Of a stretch of 64,000 nucleotides of DNA, positions 21,630 through 30,313 are shown one piece after another. Position numbers and translations under genes: made by a program. Under the pieces are notes generated by a model. It ran no database searches. It saw only the letters and a list, made by a program, of their open reading frames with translations, and had not been told where the DNA came from. Every line of letters begins with the position of its first letter. Within the stretch, counting starts at the first letter, position 1. The stretch comes from Planctomycetales bacterium (GTDB lineage: Bacteria; Planctomycetota; Planctomycetia; Planctomycetales; Planctomycetaceae), in NCBI GenBank assembly GCA_026400835.1, contig JAPLOA010000077.1, positions 1-64,000 on the forward strand. Reading direction: 5' to 3'.

Positions 21630-23003
21630 TCACGGACGGGCGATCGAGAATGAATACGTCTCCAGAACCGGATCAGGATCATCAAGGTAAGAACCTGCGG
21701 AAATCGTTTCCACAATGCCGAATCCCGCAGATTCAAGCAGTTCTGCGGGATTGTCTGTACCAAAAATGAAAGACTCGCCTAAAGAATCCATTCCCTCAAG
21801 AAAGCTAAGGATTCGTTGATCGTTTGTTCGGCGAGTGACGACTTTGGGCTCGACGAAGTCTGTCCACAAGCAGCTGAGCGGGTGCTGCATGAGTTCTCGA
21901 AAAGACTTGTAGAGTCGCAGATTCTCGACCTCCGAAAAATACATCGAGCAGCCTTCGAAGATAATGGCCGTTGGGACTGTGGGGTCGAATCGTTCATGTT
22001 CACCAATAATTTTTGTCAGATCTTGCGTCTTGAAGTCCGCCGTCAACATCACTCTTTGATGCCTGTAATCCTCCTGCAGCAACTTAGTGACACGCTCCCG
22101 CTCGGCGATCATTTCGGGCAAATCGATTTCAAAAAAGGTCACGTGCGGATGGCTGGATGCATGCTTAATAGATCGCATATCTAATCCAGCCCCGGCCAGC
22201 ACCACCTGGCGGAGACCTGGCACCTGCTGAATCATTTCATCAATATGCTGGGAACGCGTCAGAACCATATCGTTCAGCTGCGGCAGAATCGAATTCAGAT
22301 GGTCTGCCAAAAGGTGCCCGTGCGGTCCAGCTGCAAATCCGGCGTGGGGACAATGTGACCGGAGTTTTGCGCGTGCTGACGATTTTCCTCGAACGCCTGC
22401 GATCATTCGAGCTGATGCCTTGAGTTTGTGGTTGAACAGCGTTGAGCGAGATGGTTGCGGAGCGGCAGGCGTTAACTGGATCGTAGGCTGTGCGAAGTAT
22501 TTCATCTCAGCTTCAGCGGCCAATTCACCGTTGGAATAGCACCGTACCTGCAACGTCACCAGCACGCGATTGCCCCGGAAGTACCGCTGTTTCACTTCCT
22601 CTGCCTGAACAGGATCGATTTCACAGATGCCAGTGAGATGACCAGTGCTCGGGCATTTGTAGCGGACATTCATTCCCGCCAGCCAGAGTGAAGCTGAAAC
22701 ATCGTTGCGGCAGGCGTGAATGCCGGCAAGTGGCACTCCGCGCAGCAAAGTTGCCAATGCCATGCCGCCGGTATAGTCGGCCGAAAGTGAGATTAACGCC
22801 GCCTGATGTGTGCCGTGCTGATTAGTTGTTTCTTTATTGAGGGGCAGCAAAGTCTCACAGAATCCTTCTCTGACACTTTTAATCTGCCAGTCACATCGAT
22901 CCAGTACCGGGATGGATGTCCGCAGAAGGCTGGTCATCAGTTCGGGATTCATTCGATCGCGGTAATCTTGTTCCCATGAAACTTCAAGCTGCTGCATAGC
23001 CAT
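21630..23003 (-). CDS. Hotdog (DUF4442-like) domain fused to an LCM-type methyltransferase
   Basis: A 457-residue cytoplasmic protein with two parts. Residues ~20-170 resemble a DUF4442/YiiD-C hotdog thioesterase-like domain: NQHGTHQAALISLSADYTGGMAL is the usual central helix region, followed by strands RYFRGNRVLVTLQVRCYSNGELAAEAEMKYF. Residues ~195-457 look like a leucine carboxyl methyltransferase (PPM1/LCM) domain: QVVLAGAGLDMRS for the SAM-binding GxGxDxR, FFEIDLPEMIAERERV for motif II, and IFEGCSMYFSEVENL for the 'ytEGllmYl' motif. LCM-family bacterial proteins often methylate carboxyl groups in natural-product synthesis; thioesterase-like hotdogs handle acyl-CoA or acyl-ACP. Joined, they might release an acyl group and O-methylate it, but this is inference. 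I know of no named family with this order. Confidence 0.75.
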   Translation of the reverse strand: MAMQQLEVSWEQDYRDRMNPELMTSLLRTSIPVLDRCDWQIKSVREGFCETLLPLNKETTNQHGTHQAALISLSADYTGGMALATLLRGVPLAGIHACRNDVSASLWLAGMNVRYKCPSTGHLTGICEIDPVQAEEVKQRYFRGNRVLVTLQVRCYSNGELAAEAEMKYFAQPTIQLTPAAPQPSRSTLFNHKLKASARMIAGVRGKSSARAKLRSHCPHAGFAAGPHGHLLADHLNSILPQLNDMVLTRSQHIDEMIQQVPGLRQVVLAGAGLDMRSIKHASSHPHVTFFEIDLPEMIAERERVTKLLQEDYRHQRVMLTADFKTQDLTKIIGEHERFDPTVPTAIIFEGCSMYFSEVENLRLYKSFRELMQHPLSCLWTDFVEPKVVTRRTNDQRILSFLEGMDSLGESFIFGTDNPAELLESAGFGIVETISAGSYLDDPDPVLETYSFSIARP

Positions 23004-23256: not shown

Positions 23257-26200
23257 TCAATTACCGGGCGGGACTGCTGAAGTAGCCCCGCGGCGCAGTA
23301 CCCTGGTGATTGCTGTGAGCTCGGTCGCAACAAGTCTGGCTCCAACAGAATCCTTTTCTTTGGCAAAGTCCTGAATGGCAATACCCATATTGGTGTAGTT
23401 CATCAGGCCGACCGTTCCTCCCGTCCCCTTAATCCAGTGTCCGATCTGAGACAATCGCTGCCAGTCCAAAGCGGAGATGGCCGAATGAATCTCCGGGAGA
23501 GTGCTTTCGACCTTGGACAAAAATCGCAAAGCAAAATCGCGAAACACGGGATCTGTTGGCAATTGGGGCTCGGGGCGCGGAGTTATCTCCTCCACGATCG
23601 CAGCACAGACGGGGGCCGGGGCCGGGTGGCGGTAAGCGGCGACTTTATTTTCAGTCATCGTCTTCACTGAAGGAACGATCTTATCGACAGGTCGCCCGAG
23701 TTGCATGGCGACGCTTTCCAGCAGGCTGGCCATCGAGATTGGCTTAGTCAGATAGCCTGAGCATCCAGCCTGATGACACTTTCGCTGATCTTCCTCCATC
23801 CCGTTGGCGGTAATAGCGACGATGGGCAATGTTATCCCGGATGATCTCAATTCCCGAGTCGCGGTGTAGCCATCCATCACTGGCATCTGCATATCCATCA
23901 GCACCAGATCAAATTTCTCACGTTGAAGGAGATCGACGGCTTCCTGTCCATCACACGCAAAGCTGCACTCAGCATGAGCTCTGCGCAGGACCATCGCGAA
24001 TAATTCTCGGTTTGCCTCAACGTCATCGACAATGAGAATTCGGCAGCCTCTCAGATTCGCGACGGTGCGACCCGTTGAAATCGGAGACGTCAGTGAAGCT
24101 TCCGCCTCTGCAGCATTGAGCATGCGAACGTCGCTCAGAGATCCTGTAGTAATTGTCACGGTAAAGGTGCTTCCGCCCCCCAGTTCACTGGTCAATTCAA
24201 TTCCACCGCCAAGGGCCTCTGCCAGCTGGCGACTAATAGGCAATCCCAGGCCTGTGCCTCCGAATCTCCTGACAACAGTAGCGTCCGCCTGCTTGAACGG
24301 TTCAAACACATCCTTCATTGCGGAGGGAGCAATTCCCGGCCCGGTATCCTGAATTTTGATTATTAACTGTCTGTTCATCTCATCGATTTCAACAAACAGA
24401 TCGACACTTCCTGTCGTCGTAAACTTGATGGCATTTCCAATAAGGTTGGTCAGGATCTGCCGCAGCCGGGTGGGATCTGTGAGAATCGTTGCGGGAATCT
24501 GGTTGAGGACTCTCAGCGTCAACTTGAGATTCTTGTCGATCGCTCGTGACTGAAGTGAGGAGAGGACGTCATGCAACAGTGCATAGGGAGCGACCTGAAT
24601 TGATTCAGTCGTCAGTTGTCCGGCTTCAATTTTTGACAGATCGAGCAGATCATTCAGCAGGCGATGCAGGTGATTACCATTGCTAAGTACGCGATTCAAA
24701 TAAGCATTTTGCTCTGGCAGGAGCGGCATATCTCCGTTCAGCAATAGCTCTGTGAATCCGAGGACCGCTCCGATAGGTGTGCGAATCTCGTGACTCATAT
24801 GTGCCAAAAAGTCACTCTTTGCTCGACTCGCCTGTTCGGCGGCATCGCGGGCGGCAGCCAGCTGGGTCTGAGCTTTTCGCAGATTGTCGGCCGTTTCCAG
24901 CAGCTCGGCAGAACGAGCCTCGACAATGGCCGTGCGTTCTTCAACAATGTTTTCAAGGTTGGCGTTAAGTTCCTGAAGATTTTGAAATCCCGCTGCGTTT
25001 TCAAGAGCCGCGCCGGCAATCGCAGTAAGGTACCTTGCAATGCGCAACTCGTTAGCGCCGAACAAGTCACGCACTTCTGAGTTCCCTATCACGAGGCACG
25101 AGGTCACTCTCGAACGCACGATGATAGGGCACACAAGCAAAGAGCGAAATTCCATCCCTGAGTTAGCCGTCACGGCATCCAAAGACTTGATTGCCGTCAA
25201 CGCAGTGGACTTTATAGACTCGCTGTTAGTGACTGGCTGACCGAGATCGTCCAGTCGCACGACCTCACAGTGAATACTCCGCAGCAGCCTCCTGGCAGCT
25301 TCCACGGCTGTCGCTGCGATTGTTGCGGGATCATTGGCCACCGCAATCTGACGGCCGGATTCCAGCAAGGAGTCGAAGCGATCCACAAGCGATACTGAGG
25401 AAAACATTCGTTGCGGAAGTTGTTCACTACGAAATGCCGCGTGTTGTCGTTCCGCATTCTCCAGTGCTGATTCTGCCTGGCGATATCCCAGTTCGACTCG
25501 AATTTTCTGAAGGAGCAATTCGCTCTGAATGACTTCGTATTCCGCCTTTTGTCGTTGTGCAATTCGAATACTCTTTTTCAAAAGCAGAACTGCCAGACGA
25601 TTTCGGTTCCGAAAAATCTGAGACCACGCATACTCCCTAAGAGCGTGAGGGAGTTCATTGCGGAATCGAAGAGCAATCAGCACAGATCGCAATGCTGCCC
25701 GGCGATGCTCACGGATAATCCCGCGACGCGGGCGGCGCGTCAATGGTGAGTTGCCTTCCAGATAAGACCGTAGCGCGGTTGCTTTCCACGCGTATAGCGG
25801 CGACGTGTATGTATTGGAAATCCCTGCGCCTGCGGCTGCCAGAATGCCCTGCTCAAGTATCTCAGAGGCGTCTTCGAACCGTCCTTCTGAGATCAGACAG
25901 ATGCCTTTCGCCAGCAGGACATGGGCCTGTCCCTGCACATCAGCCCGCGGACGGTCCAGTTCACATTGCAGGATTGCGGGAGGTACGTCACCATTGCTCG
26001 CGCGAGCCCAGACCTCAATAATGTTTCCACATACCTGGTAATCGCCCACTGCGAGTCCTGAGTCATAGGCTTCCCGCGAAAGCTGCACAGCCTCTGTAAA
26101 CCGTCCCAGACGATACAAAGATGCCGCGACCTGATACTGAGCAATATGCTTTTCCCAGAAGTCGCCAGCCCGTTCAAGAATTCGGACGCTCCGACGGCCA

Positions 26201-29058
26201 ACTTCTACGCATTCTTCAAACTGGGTGGCCGAATAGAGCGCAATCGCAAGGCAATGCAGCGATTGGCCCTGCCCCCAGATATCATTCTGTTCCGTTCGAA
26301 TCTGCAACGATCGTCTTCCATAAGCAATCCCGCGCTGGCTCAGAGGAATCAGGCTCATCGCAGGGGCATGTTCCGAATAGGCCTGCGCCAGTTCGGCCGT
26401 TGGTATATGCCGTTCCGCCAGATTCATGCCTCGCAGGTGCGAGTGAAGAACTTCCAGTTTGCTGCGCACGAACCAATAGGCATAGGCAAGACGACTATGA
26501 AGCCTCCAGATAAGTCGATTCTCGGCCGACGGCTCAGCCTTGAATCGTGCCAAAAAGAACTTAGGCAGCAATGAATGGAACACCTGAACGGCAACTTCAC
26601 GAACGGTCGAAAATGGCAGACGCCATGCCGTTGGAAGTTTGCCTCCGAGGCTGATCAGTGCCGATTCCCAGAGTTCGATTGCACGATCTTTTTTGTCTTC
26701 CTTAAACGCCAGCTCACCCAGCTTCAGCGTGACTTGTGCGCGAGTTGCGGAGGAGTCGGCGCACTGGATGGCTTTTTCAAAAAAGGGTTCTGCTTCCTGA
26801 TAGCGGCCGCAAAGCATCAGAACATCGCCAAGTCCATAAAGCACTCGAAAATCGGGTTGTTCGCGACGAGCGATGCAACTTCTTAATGCAATGCGGTACT
26901 GCTGCTCAGCCGTTTCCAGAGCGTGGCTGACCCTGGCCTGTTCGGCCGCTTCAATTGCAAAATCTTTCGCCAGATCAGAGCGGCCGGATGCGTCATGATG
27001 CAGAGCAATGTCAAAAATGCGGTGCGGCGAGTTCTGACTCAAATAGACAGCCGCCCGACGGTGAATGTCGACCGTTCGATCGGGAGACAGTGTTTTCAGA
27101 ATTGCGTCGCGGATCTGATCGTGCATGAACACACAAATGCTGCCGGAAGAACGTTCCCAGATGAGGTAGTTCCGTCTGGGTTCCGTCAATAATTCGAGGA
27201 CGCGATCACCGGGAATCTCAGCGAGTTCCGCGGCCATCTCGATCGCGAATTCCTTGCCAAGCACGGCCCCTACGGCCAGCAATTGCTGAGACTCCTCAGG
27301 TAAGCGAAAAAGTCGCTGTTTCAGAACCTCGGCCGCCTCGCCACAGAGCTGAAGATTTCGGAGTCGCCCGTCATCGACTTTCCAGCCGGTGCACGAGGCG
27401 GCAAGAATCTCGGCTTCCACAAGTCCACGCAGAACCGCAGAAGCCACAAACGGATTTCCCCTGGACATCTCCCAGACTGTGTCCAGAATCTGCTGCGGAA
27501 GTCCGCCAGCCATAGAATTCAGCAATTGATCATGGTTTGCTCGGTTCAGCACGTCCAATGCAATCCGCGCAGAACAAACGAGTGAATCTCGCAGTCGCTC
27601 CGATGTTGCATCCAGTGGACGGGTACCGACCACTAACATCGCCCGGCGAGGATTTGTAAGATGCCAGCATTCCAGCATTGTCAGCGTTAGATCGTCGGCC
27701 CACTGCATATCGTCCAGCAGCAGCAGCAATGGTCGCTCTTCAGTGCCCATGGCCCCAAGCAGGGTTGCCAGTGCCACGGAGATTCGTCGGTCTGAAAGTT
27801 CGTCAGTTCGCTCCGGTGGAATCTGCAGATTCAATTCTGCAACAATCTCCGGAGTGATTGTCTGAAGTTCTCTTCCGAGTTCACTGAGCTCTGCAGCAAG
27901 GCGCCGCCTTAGCGAATCATCCTGACGAATGATATCAAGGCATTGACTCAATGTTCCCTGCAGTGATGCAATTGGTGCCAGTCCAATCTGATTCTGTCCA
28001 TTCGCGCGGAGGATTCGAAATCCCTGAGCAACAGCCGTGCGAGAGATTTCCAGAAACAGCCGTGATTTCCCCAGACCGGAGGCCCCTGTCACCAATACCG
28101 TACAACTGCCCCCTTCGCGGACCGAATCCAGTTCCGATTGCAACAGCCCCAAATCAGCACTCCGACCCACAAATGCCGGTTCGATCAAGGTCTCGCGACG
28201 ATCCATCGTGCCGAGAACTAAACACTGCGGAAATTCGGCAGAAAGAGACATCTTCACCTGACGAAGGTCGAACAGTACTCCACCAGCAGATTGGTAGCGA
28301 TCGCGTGGATGCTTCTGAAGCAGCCGCAGGATGATGTCATTAACGTCGGCCGGAATTCGAGAATTCAGCAATTCAAGGTCCGGCACCGGGGAAGTCATGT
28401 GATGAAACATCATGTCGCCGGAAGTTGTTGCCGTAAACGGCGTCCGTCCGGACAAACACTCGAAGAGCACGATACCTGCCGAGTAAAGATCTGACGAAGA
28501 CCTGACGTCTTCCTCTAATGCACCCAGTGCTTCGGGCGAGGAATACGTTGCAATCTCCAGGGCGGCCTTATCGCTGAGCATTCCCTGCATGATCAGCAGA
28601 GGCCCATACCCTCCGACAAAAGCACGCAATCGGCCGTCGGATTCCTGCAGATAAATCTCTTCGGGGCGCAGGCAACGACGCACAATCCCTTTGCTGTGCA
28701 GAACAACCAATGCTTCAAGCAGGTCCTCTGCAATCGAAAAGATTTCCTCGAGTGTCAGACCTGTGGTCCGAATCTTTTCCGCGAGGGTAGACCCCTCAAC
28801 GTACGAACAGACGATTGTGGCCGACTCGTTGTTGAACTCAAAGTCCAGAGGAACGGTCATTCGTTCGATTGGCAGTAACGCCAGCTGCGCTGTTTCGTAT
28901 TCCAGCCGCATCCGAACGGCTGCCGGAGTGTCTGCGTCAAATCTCACATGATGCATCAGCACACGATTGCCGGATTCACTTGCAGCGAGAGTCGTACGGC
29001 ACGCGGCGTTGATAGTCAGAGTTGATTGATCTCGATAGTTCGACCAGTTCTTGCGCAT
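23257..29058 (-). CDS. Hybrid signalling protein: pseudokinase - AAA ATPase - TPR - GAF - histidine kinase - receiver - HPt
   Basis: A ~1933-residue protein. Residues ~25-275 are a PknB-type kinase fold; the catalytic-loop HRDLKPEN is replaced by RRCLRPEE (C129 for the catalytic Asp), DFG by GYG (150-152) and the VAIK Lys by His, so it should be inactive. Residues ~297-600 are a STAND/AAA-like NTPase (Walker A GASGLGKS 325-332; Walker B LLLLLDDMQW). TPR-like helices run ~690-1210, and a GAF-like domain ~1235-1370. A histidine kinase follows: H-box FLAHMSHEIRTP (phospho-His ~1423), N-box LIGNAIKFT, G boxes DTGPGIAP and GGTGLGLPIS. A receiver domain has LMDMQMPVMDG with the phospho-Asp near residue 1720; an HPt domain has HWIKGTGG, His ~1874. 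ATG 29058 is taken; a TTG lies 4 codons upstream. It is 49 bases after an HD-GYP regulator and probably shares its promoter. Confidence 0.9.
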   Translation of the reverse strand: MRKNWSNYRDQSTLTINAACRTTLAASESGNRVLMHHVRFDADTPAAVRMRLEYETAQLALLPIERMTVPLDFEFNNESATIVCSYVEGSTLAEKIRTTGLTLEEIFSIAEDLLEALVVLHSKGIVRRCLRPEEIYLQESDGRLRAFVGGYGPLLIMQGMLSDKAALEIATYSSPEALGALEEDVRSSSDLYSAGIVLFECLSGRTPFTATTSGDMMFHHMTSPVPDLELLNSRIPADVNDIILRLLQKHPRDRYQSAGGVLFDLRQVKMSLSAEFPQCLVLGTMDRRETLIEPAFVGRSADLGLLQSELDSVREGGSCTVLVTGASGLGKSRLFLEISRTAVAQGFRILRANGQNQIGLAPIASLQGTLSQCLDIIRQDDSLRRRLAAELSELGRELQTITPEIVAELNLQIPPERTDELSDRRISVALATLLGAMGTEERPLLLLLDDMQWADDLTLTMLECWHLTNPRRAMLVVGTRPLDATSERLRDSLVCSARIALDVLNRANHDQLLNSMAGGLPQQILDTVWEMSRGNPFVASAVLRGLVEAEILAASCTGWKVDDGRLRNLQLCGEAAEVLKQRLFRLPEESQQLLAVGAVLGKEFAIEMAAELAEIPGDRVLELLTEPRRNYLIWERSSGSICVFMHDQIRDAILKTLSPDRTVDIHRRAAVYLSQNSPHRIFDIALHHDASGRSDLAKDFAIEAAEQARVSHALETAEQQYRIALRSCIARREQPDFRVLYGLGDVLMLCGRYQEAEPFFEKAIQCADSSATRAQVTLKLGELAFKEDKKDRAIELWESALISLGGKLPTAWRLPFSTVREVAVQVFHSLLPKFFLARFKAEPSAENRLIWRLHSRLAYAYWFVRSKLEVLHSHLRGMNLAERHIPTAELAQAYSEHAPAMSLIPLSQRGIAYGRRSLQIRTEQNDIWGQGQSLHCLAIALYSATQFEECVEVGRRSVRILERAGDFWEKHIAQYQVAASLYRLGRFTEAVQLSREAYDSGLAVGDYQVCGNIIEVWARASNGDVPPAILQCELDRPRADVQGQAHVLLAKGICLISEGRFEDASEILEQGILAAAGAGISNTYTSPLYAWKATALRSYLEGNSPLTRRPRRGIIREHRRAALRSVLIALRFRNELPHALREYAWSQIFRNRNRLAVLLLKKSIRIAQRQKAEYEVIQSELLLQKIRVELGYRQAESALENAERQHAAFRSEQLPQRMFSSVSLVDRFDSLLESGRQIAVANDPATIAATAVEAARRLLRSIHCEVVRLDDLGQPVTNSESIKSTALTAIKSLDAVTANSGMEFRSLLVCPIIVRSRVTSCLVIGNSEVRDLFGANELRIARYLTAIAGAALENAAGFQNLQELNANLENIVEERTAIVEARSAELLETADNLRKAQTQLAAARDAAEQASRAKSDFLAHMSHEIRTPIGAVLGFTELLLNGDMPLLPEQNAYLNRVLSNGNHLHRLLNDLLDLSKIEAGQLTTESIQVAPYALLHDVLSSLQSRAIDKNLKLTLRVLNQIPATILTDPTRLRQILTNLIGNAIKFTTTGSVDLFVEIDEMNRQLIIKIQDTGPGIAPSAMKDVFEPFKQADATVVRRFGGTGLGLPISRQLAEALGGGIELTSELGGGSTFTVTITTGSLSDVRMLNAAEAEASLTSPISTGRTVANLRGCRILIVDDVEANRELFAMVLRRAHAECSFACDGQEAVDLLQREKFDLVLMDMQMPVMDGYTATRELRSSGITLPIVAITANGMEEDQRKCHQAGCSGYLTKPISMASLLESVAMQLGRPVDKIVPSVKTMTENKVAAYRHPAPAPVCAAIVEEITPRPEPQLPTDPVFRDFALRFLSKVESTLPEIHSAISALDWQRLSQIGHWIKGTGGTVGLMNYTNMGIAIQDFAKEKDSVGARLVATELTAITRVLRRGATSAVPPGN

Positions 29059-29107
29059 CGGGCTTGCCAATTAAAGTACTTTTGTTGAGGCACCTGTCCG
29101 GGAGAAC

Positions 29108-30313
29108 TTAATCGGTATCTGCTTCCGAGATCTGGACGGCGATAATGTCCGACCGCTTGGCAAAGAATGCGTCCAGGACCTGAGGATCAAAATGTGTGCC
29201 TCGTCCCTCCTCCAGGATTGCGAAACATTTTTTCAGTGAAAATGCAGGCTTGTAAGGTCGTCTGCTGCTTAATGCGTCGAATACGTCAGCAACAGCTGTG
29301 ATACGACCACAGAGAGGAATGTCCTCGCCTGCCAGACCAAGCGGATAACCGCTGCCATCCCATCGTTCGTGATGAGTCAGTGCAATCAGCTTCGCCAGTT
29401 CCAGAATCGGCGAGCGTGATGAGTCGATAATCTTTGCGCCGATCTCAGCGTGCTGTCGCAGGATCTTCGCATCGGCTTCAGAGATCGGATCCGTAATACG
29501 CTTTCCAAATCCACAGTGCCTCTGCATCTGTTCAAATTCTTCCTGACTGAGCTTACCTGGCTTCAGAAGTATTGAATCCGCGATGCCAATCTTGCCAACG
29601 TCGTGCAGCTGAGCCGCTGGCTCCAGGATATCAAGTTCCTGGGGTGAGAATCCCATTTGTTCGCCAATGATACGCGTGTATCGACCGACGCGAAGCACAT
29701 GCTGCCCCGTGTCGTCGTCACGAAACTCGGCCGCGCGGGCAAGGCAGTGAATGACCTCCAGCCGTGACGCTTCCAGCTCCGCTGTCCTGTGGCGGACGGC
29801 ATCCTCAAGCCGTTCCGAATGAAGGCTTAACTGATCCTGAAAGGCTTTGACCTTCAGAACATTGCTGATGCGGGCGAGCAATTCTTCGCTGTGAACTGGC
29901 TTGGAAAGAAGATCCGTCGCTCCGGCCCTCAGTGCTACCAGTTTTGTCTCGGGGTCGGAGCACCCTGTCAGAATGATCACTGGTGTTTGAGATAGATCAG
30001 GGTCAGACCGGACCGCGGACAGAATCTGGAGCCCGCCGATCTCAGGCATCTGAATATCCAACAATACCAGATCCGGACGATGATATCCGATCAGGGGCAA
30101 TGCCTGTCCGGCATGATCTGTCGAAAAAATGTTTGTGAATCCACCGATGTCAAGATAACGCTGAACAACCTCGATGTTCAGCATTTCATCATCGACAATC
30201 AGGATCTTCGCATCCTGAATATCCCGGCGCAGATCATTGGTGGGTTCATGCCCGGCATGACTCGTAAAGCTAAGCCTTTGACGCCCAGTGGAACAAGGAG
30301 TTGCCGTTATCAT
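29108..30313 (-). CDS. Response regulator with HD-GYP output domain (cyclic-di-GMP phosphodiesterase type)
   Basis: A 401-residue cytoplasmic two-domain regulator. The receiver domain (~35-155) has the acidic pair DD (41-42), the phospho-acceptor D86 in LVLLDIQMP, T116 in ILTG and K138 in LLSKPV. A short linker leads into an HD-GYP domain (~185-385) with H237-D238 of HDVGK and the HHERWDGSGYP motif (314-324), both complete. Such domains hydrolyse cyclic-di-GMP to pGpG or GMP. The architecture is that of RpfG-type regulators. Its gene is upstream of and co-directional with the large hybrid kinase, only 49 bases apart, so the hybrid's HPt domain is the natural phosphodonor candidate. The ATG at 30313 is used; 30 residues precede the receiver. 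Confidence 0.95.
   Translation of the reverse strand: MITATPCSTGRQRLSFTSHAGHEPTNDLRRDIQDAKILIVDDEMLNIEVVQRYLDIGGFTNIFSTDHAGQALPLIGYHRPDLVLLDIQMPEIGGLQILSAVRSDPDLSQTPVIILTGCSDPETKLVALRAGATDLLSKPVHSEELLARISNVLKVKAFQDQLSLHSERLEDAVRHRTAELEASRLEVIHCLARAAEFRDDDTGQHVLRVGRYTRIIGEQMGFSPQELDILEPAAQLHDVGKIGIADSILLKPGKLSQEEFEQMQRHCGFGKRITDPISEADAKILRQHAEIGAKIIDSSRSPILELAKLIALTHHERWDGSGYPLGLAGEDIPLCGRITAVADVFDALSSRRPYKPAFSLKKCFAILEEGRGTHFDPQVLDAFFAKRSDIIAVQISEADTD

What the first reader, a model, noticed from the sequence alone, without database searches (positions are those of the whole stretch)
23257..29058. Serine/threonine pseudokinase fused to ATPase-TPR-GAF-histidine kinase-receiver-HPt
Such fusions exist with active kinases in other bacteria. 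Here the Asp of HRD is Cys (129), DFG is GYG (150-152) and the VAIK Lys is absent, while APE-like SPE (174-176) and other structural residues remain. So the Ser/Thr kinase part should be a regulator or sensor scaffold only, with signalling output by the histidine kinase phosphorelay.
Basis: partly seen in the sequence, partly recalled or inferred. Interest (0 to 1): 0.6.

Follow-up and report, generated by a model that had tools for sequence, protein, structure and literature searches.

The report
Dead-kinase sensor beside lipid-signal genes
A large planctomycete sensor protein carries a protein-kinase domain that has lost its catalytic residues but is still under selection; its intact histidine-kinase relay sits next to a cyclic-di-GMP enzyme, a fatty-acid pore and a lipid-type methyltransferase, which suggests, without proving it, that these dead kinases help read a fatty-acid-derived signal.

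Summary
ORF 23257-29070(-) encodes pseudokinase-AAA_16(COG3899-like)-TPR-GAF-HisKA-HATPase-REC-HPt. The Hanks-type domain lacks the beta3 Lys (His41), HRD Asp (Cys133) and DFG Asp (Gly154). It is still predicted as a full PknB-like fold (pLDDT 92.5) and is under purifying selection (dN/dS about 0.1). All histidine-kinase, receiver, HPt and Walker residues are intact.

Close planctomycete orthologs share the loss. In an 85-member family, 48 lack the HRD or DFG Asp, while Myxococcus, actinobacterial and polyketide-synthase-linked relatives keep them. The loss is recurrent: 6 changes at minimum, 13 if irreversible. This kind of protein is already described: bacterial 'CP1' kinases are COG3899-linked and about 40% are pseudokinases.

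New here is the genomic context. Degenerate kinases sit beside a REC-HD-GYP (31/48 against 2/37 intact), a SAM methyltransferase (PhcB-like, or thioesterase-LCM as here) and often FadL. Where the kinase lacks HPt, a separate HPt gene usually accompanies the REC-HD-GYP; here HPt is fused.

Best reading: the dead kinase is a non-catalytic input/scaffold module, the output is a His-Asp-His-Asp relay onto the adjacent HD-GYP, and the input is probably a fatty-acid-derived ligand. The last step is the weakest.

The parts
23257..29070 (-). Hybrid histidine kinase with N-terminal pseudokinase, 1937 aa (TTG start 29070, alternative ATG 29058)
28192..29058 (-). Pseudokinase domain; beta3 Lys replaced by His41 (28948-28950), HRD Asp by Cys133 (28672-28674), DFG Asp by Gly154 (28609-28611)
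27661..28173 (-). AAA_16 / COG3899-like NTPase, Walker A GASGLGKS and Walker B LLLLDD present
25411..26880 (-). TPR region (residues about 731-1220)
   Evidence: among the most conserved parts in close orthologs
24901..25410 (-). GAF-like region (residues about 1221-1390), seen by profile only in orthologs
24151..24822 (-). HisKA + HATPase_c, phospho-accepting His1427, N, G1 and G2 boxes intact
23710..24039 (-). Receiver domain, phospho-accepting Asp1726
23347..23526 (-). HPt domain, His1878 (HWIKG)
29108..30313 (-). REC-HD-GYP response regulator (RpfG-like), 37 bp upstream on the same strand; REC Asp, HD and GYP motifs intact
21630..23003 (-). Hotdog thioesterase-like (YiiD_C/DUF4442) fused to an LCM-type SAM methyltransferase (TIGR00027-like), 457 aa
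20089..21408 (-). FadL/OMPP1/TodX-family outer-membrane transporter
   Evidence: conserved neighbour

Best explanation
The protein is a cytosolic hybrid histidine kinase whose N-terminal Hanks-type domain is a pseudokinase. That domain does not transfer phosphate. It works with the AAA-TPR part as a regulatory input/scaffold that controls the C-terminal histidine kinase. Phosphate then passes His1427 -> Asp1726 -> His1878 -> the receiver of the neighbouring REC-HD-GYP protein, changing c-di-GMP turnover. The conserved neighbours (FadL pore, thioesterase-methyltransferase) suggest the input is a fatty-acid-derived, possibly methylated, molecule, so the locus would work like the Rpf/DSF or Phc systems. 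Shown by sequence: the losses, intact relay residues, purifying selection, conserved neighbourhood, and the swap between fused and separate HPt. Inferred: no kinase activity, the relay partner, the direction of the c-di-GMP effect, and the ligand (weakest step). My probabilities: catalytically dead 0.9; relay to the HD-GYP 0.8; lipid-type ligand about 0.4.
For: Residue losses shared by orthologs. AF2 fold pLDDT 92.5 with PknA/PknB as best matches, Z 27-30. dN/dS about 0.1 in the N- and C-lobe, like the rest of the protein. Relay residues intact. REC-HD-GYP within five genes of 31/48 degenerate and 2/37 intact kinases, with only 7 HD_5 matches in the 7.58 Mb genome. 22 of 28 loci with a REC-HD-GYP and an HPt-less kinase have a separate HPt gene; 0 of 5 with a fused HPt do (counted). 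A SAM methyltransferase neighbours 30/48 degenerate kinases. One methyltransferase family matches a 468-aa MTase (hhalign 99.4%, 1e-21) that lies in a MTase-HK-REC-REC operon on a Paraburkholderia plasmid; PhcB is 464-468 aa in a phcB-S-R-Q operon (PMC8578825). RpfC relays via REC and HPt to the HD-GYP protein RpfG (PMC4504480).
Against: The ligand is unknown. The window's own methyltransferase is not of the PhcB-like family, and LCM-type enzymes can also methylate proteins or polyketides. Some degenerate members show none of these neighbours (L125, L129, L147). The enrichment is partly shared ancestry: the phylogenetically independent pair test had too few pairs to decide. A kinase lacking Lys and both Asp could still bind nucleotide or catalyse another reaction (SelO and SidJ are precedents, PMC12599244). 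A 253-bp gap separates the methyltransferase gene from the kinase gene, so a single operon is not shown.
Confidence: 0.5

Rival explanations
1. The kinase domain is a passive evolutionary remnant, or has a structural role only, while AAA-TPR and GAF do all the sensing; the loss has no regulatory meaning.
For: Once the HRD Asp is lost the position varies freely among relatives (C, N, G, S, A, R, Q, Y), and the N-lobe is among the least conserved parts.
Against: The domain is kept in every full-length family member read, has dN/dS about 0.1, and keeps a confident full fold. The search itself used the kinase-AAA half, so members that lost the domain would be under-sampled.
Confidence: 0.25
2. The kinase fold retains an unconventional activity (nucleotide binding, AMPylation or another transfer).
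For: Precedents SelO and SidJ (PMC12599244); the alphaC Glu region is nearly invariant; some relatives lose only one of the three residues.
Against: In the window clade beta3 Lys, HRD Asp, the catalytic-loop Asn and DFG Asp are all gone, so the usual phosphate and metal ligands are missing.
Confidence: 0.1
3. The neighbouring genes are a small biosynthetic cluster (methylated lipid or polyketide) and the kinase only regulates its expression; no signalling molecule is involved.
For: Intact-kinase relatives often sit directly downstream of large polyketide synthases with a thioesterase (9/37).
Against: None of the degenerate-kinase loci has a polyketide synthase (0/48), and their common output gene is an HD-GYP protein, not a DNA-binding regulator.
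Confidence: 0.2
4. The methyltransferase modifies a signalling protein (adaptation, CheR- or LCMT1-like) rather than making a lipid ligand.
For: LCM domain similarity to PPM1/LCMT1; a weak CheR match in the PhcB-like operon MTase.
Against: It is fused to a hotdog acyl-thioesterase-like domain and neighbours FadL; the closest solved relatives are ML2640 and Rv0731c rather than LCMT1.
Confidence: 0.15

Closest known systems
CP1 bacterial Ser/Thr kinases and pseudokinases (PMC12599244)
   Same: Kinase domain linked to a COG3899 ATPase and often GAF/FhlA or PAS, no transmembrane region, about 40% with degraded catalytic motifs in mixed combinations.
   Different: CP1 is described mainly from cyanobacteria and proteobacteria and without known function; this one is planctomycete, carries HK-REC-HPt and lies in a conserved signalling neighbourhood.
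HstK-type dual kinases of Nostoc (PMC1262709) and NCBI-named trifunctional Ser/Thr kinase/ATP-binding/sensor histidine kinases
   Same: Ser/Thr kinase-like domain, GAF and histidine kinase in one protein; plasmid relatives found.
   Different: Dual kinases are described as carrying catalytic domains of both kinases; here the Ser/Thr domain is degenerate and REC and HPt are added.
Fungal Mak2/Mak3 and CaChk1 histidine kinases (PMC5383687, PMC9069115)
   Same: CaChk1 has an S_TKc-like domain, AAA_16, GAF, HisK and REC in the same order; removing S_TKc and AAA_16 together gave a phenotype like the full deletion.
   Different: Eukaryotic and wired to other pathways; catalytic competence of their kinase domain was not tested here.
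RpfC-RpfG / DSF system (PMC4504480)
   Same: HK-REC-HPt protein, REC-HD-GYP partner, thioesterase activity in signal synthesis, suggested FadL uptake.
   Different: No RpfF-like enzyme among the genes scanned; the sensor is a cytosolic pseudokinase-AAA-TPR-GAF protein, not a five-helix membrane domain.
PhcBSRQ (PMC8578825)
   Same: SAM methyltransferase next to a histidine kinase and receiver proteins; the methyltransferase family beside many relatives of this kinase matches a phc-like MTase.
   Different: The window's own methyltransferase belongs to another family (LCM with thioesterase); a PhcA homologue was not looked for.

Membership tests
Bacterial Ser/Thr pseudokinase | Hanks-type fold | tested here: met
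   Pfam Pkinase, AF2 plus Foldseek/VIA-align to PknA/PknB, Z 27-30
Bacterial Ser/Thr pseudokinase | Loss of catalytic-triad residues | tested here: met
Bacterial Ser/Thr pseudokinase | No phosphotransfer activity | not testable with these tools
   needs biochemistry
CP1 kinases/pseudokinases | Linked COG3899-type ATPase | tested here: met
   AAA_16 with Walker A/B directly after the kinase domain; that this AAA_16-TPR block is what COG3899 describes is from general knowledge
CP1 kinases/pseudokinases | GAF/FhlA or PAS domain (frequent, not obligatory) | tested here: met
   GAF in orthologs at the same position; below threshold in the window protein itself
CP1 kinases/pseudokinases | No transmembrane region | tested here: met
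   maximum 19-residue hydropathy 1.76, inside the GAF-like region
CP1 kinases/pseudokinases | Family-specific constraint residues | not tested
   the CP1 profile is not available here
Hybrid histidine kinase with HPt | H, N, G1, G2 boxes; REC Asp/Lys; HPt HxxKG | tested here: met
Rpf/DSF system | HK-REC-HPt plus REC-HD-GYP partner | tested here: met
Rpf/DSF system | Membrane sensor domain of RpfC type | tested here: not met
   N-terminus is pseudokinase-AAA-TPR-GAF without transmembrane helices
Rpf/DSF system | RpfF crotonase-family DSF synthase | tested here: inconclusive
   none among the window genes scanned; the rest of the genome was not searched for it
Phc system | PhcB-family methyltransferase | tested here: not met
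   window MTase does not match the phcB-like MTase and the family profile finds nothing in the genome; met in many relatives

The most novel reading that the evidence does not exclude
A planctomycete fatty-acid-derived signalling system in which a pseudokinase-AAA-TPR-GAF histidine kinase is the cytosolic receptor, a methyltransferase slot filled by either of two unrelated enzyme families makes the signal, FadL moves it, and the relay ends on an HD-GYP c-di-GMP enzyme; loss of Ser/Thr kinase activity accompanied the adoption of this role.
Probability: 0.3. Interest if true: 0.75.

Novelty: new variant of a known kind. Interest (0 to 1): 0.5.

Why it matters
A 2025 review states that bacterial pseudokinase families, CP1 included, are catalogued but without known function, and that the context it examined in Leptospira was uninformative (PMC12599244). 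Here a large set of such proteins has a recurring gene neighbourhood that names a candidate output (HPt to HD-GYP) and a candidate input (acyl/methyl chemistry). It also offers a natural experiment: related intact and degenerate versions of the same sensor, lying mostly beside polyketide-synthase or other genes and beside the methyltransferase/HD-GYP block respectively.

Tried and rejected
Sequencing error or local pseudogene: rejected, since six other species share the loss in open frames of 1937-2010 aa. Alignment shift hiding a catalytic Asp: rejected. Window methyltransferase as a PhcB homologue: rejected. Phylogenetically corrected test of degeneration against REC-HD-GYP: run, too few informative pairs to decide. 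Mutual exclusion of the two methyltransferase families: p = 0.018 uncorrected, suggestive only. NCBIfam gave only general histidine-kinase models below cut-off for the kinase. No solved structure found by sequence for the PhcB-like family. No Rfam family in the window. A PhcB reference from Ralstonia itself was not fetched; the comparison used a Paraburkholderia plasmid operon of matching layout, whose identity as phc-like rests on protein sizes and gene order. No paper found joining planctomycetes to such a system.

Full report
What is there. The minus-strand ORF 29070-23257 (1937 aa) was confirmed with domains Pkinase, AAA_16, TPR, HisKA, HATPase_c, REC and HPt; a GAF domain is recognised at the equivalent place in orthologs. 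PknB alignment and alignments with relatives show His41 at the beta3 lysine, Cys133 at the HRD aspartate and Gly154 at the DFG aspartate; the catalytic-loop Asn is also Glu. AlphaFold2 with 42 family sequences gives a complete two-lobed kinase (pLDDT 92.5), closest to PknA, PknB and Stk1. The histidine, receiver, HPt and Walker residues are intact.

Is the loss shared. Searching relatives and one named-genome scan gave a family with the same N-terminal half across Planctomycetota, Myxococcus-type bacteria, Frankia/Nocardioides-type actinobacteria and Solirubrobacteraceae. Window-clade members (L117, L118, L119, L121, and more distantly L120 and G358/L098) all lack the residues; most read R-R-C in place of HRD and have Gly in place of the DFG Asp. 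In 85 members, 48 lack the HRD or DFG Asp. On a tree built from the AAA/TPR columns only, the intact/lost trait needs at least 6 changes, or 13 losses if they cannot be undone (the 6 were counted with beta3 Lys or Arg also required for 'intact'). The tree is a quick one with several open forks, so these numbers are approximate. Intact kinases are found in the Myxococcus, actinobacterial and PKS-adjacent groups and in scattered members beside the methyltransferase block (L127, L183), so the block itself does not require the loss. Between two close orthologs (L117, L119) dN/dS of the pseudokinase lobes is about 0.1, like the rest of the protein; synonymous sites are near saturation in comparisons with the window protein itself.

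Neighbourhood. In the window, minus strand in order of transcription: REC-HD-GYP (29108-30313), 37 bp, the hybrid kinase, 253 bp, thioesterase-methyltransferase, 221 bp, FadL. In the relatives the same kinds of gene recur: REC-HD-GYP beside 31/48 degenerate and 2/37 intact kinases; FadL 16/48 and 2/37 (an undercount, since FadL-like genes in L130 and L144 were missed by the cut-off, as judged by eye); either of the two methyltransferase families 30/48 and 8/37; polyketide synthase 0/48 and 9/37. The Fisher p-values do not correct for ancestry, and the corrected test was uninformative. Some contigs end near the kinase, which lowers all counts. Where the kinase has no HPt of its own and a REC-HD-GYP is near, 22 of 28 loci have a separate HPt gene; where the HPt is fused, as in the window clade, 0 of 5 do (counted). 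This swap is the strongest argument that HPt and REC-HD-GYP belong to one relay with this kinase.

The methyltransferases. Many planctomycete loci carry a 370-390 aa family (A1) that matches a Paraburkholderia plasmid methyltransferase of 468 aa (hhalign 99.4%, E 1e-21). That gene lies in a methyltransferase, histidine kinase, receiver, receiver operon, the layout and sizes reported for phcB-phcS-phcR-phcQ (PhcB 464-468 aa, PhcQ 336-337 aa; PMC8578825). PhcB makes methyl 3-hydroxymyristate (same paper). The window clade and L130, L142, L144 instead carry a hotdog thioesterase-like domain fused to an LCM-type methyltransferase, modelled at pLDDT 83.9 but pTM only 0.60, with ML2640/Rv0731c as nearest solved methyltransferases and a probable thioesterase (1sh8) among the matches. 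The two families show no relation by profile comparison, and none of the loci read has both (p 0.018 uncorrected).

Mechanism. The parallel with RpfC-RpfG (HK-REC-HPt to a REC-HD-GYP phosphodiesterase, thioesterase activity in signal synthesis, possible FadL uptake; PMC4504480) and with Phc leads to the proposed reading: a cytosolic pseudokinase-headed receptor controlling an HD-GYP enzyme in response to a fatty-acid-derived ligand. The relay part is well supported by anatomy; the ligand part is a lead, not a test.

Novelty. The pseudokinase itself is ordinary in kind: CP1 kinases, of which the pseudokinases are all COG3899-linked, often with GAF/FhlA, about 40% degenerate, are described in PMC12599244, and dual kinases with GAF and histidine kinase have been known since HstK (PMC1262709). 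Fungal CaChk1 shares the order of domains, and Mak2/Mak3 the same kinds of domain. What I did not find described is the recurrent context and the HPt swap.

Noticed in passing
L065 1-14408; also L124, L132, L133, L152, L155, L156, L157, L185: Intact-kinase relatives lie close downstream of a large type I polyketide synthase (terminal thioesterase in L065); several are followed by a REC-HATPase_c_2 protein, and L065/L124 also by a male-sterility-type reductase: a separate conserved cluster.
   Followed up: partly
L197 8398-12773 (Paraburkholderia graminis plasmid pPHS1_P): A methyltransferase-histidine kinase-receiver-receiver operon resembling phcBSRQ on a plasmid typed as conjugative.
   Followed up: partly
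G000 contig C28 68451-71483 (L003): Another HD_5 match within about 1.5 kb of a hybrid histidine kinase match, on the same strand, in the same genome.
   Followed up: no
L156 5644-16165: Two large kinase-AAA ORFs in tandem next to a polyketide synthase; the 1324-aa one is very divergent.
   Followed up: no
L063 6400-12342, L064, L099: Another state: HRD and beta3 Lys kept, only the DFG Asp lost (GGFG), a possible intermediate in loss of activity.
   Followed up: no
L166, L182, L188 (Hyalangium, Pyxidicoccus, Myxococcus): Methyltransferase homologues of the PhcB-like family (E about 1e-20 to 1e-23), on the opposite strand, beside intact-kinase relatives, so the methyltransferase-kinase link may be older than the planctomycete block.
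   Followed up: partly
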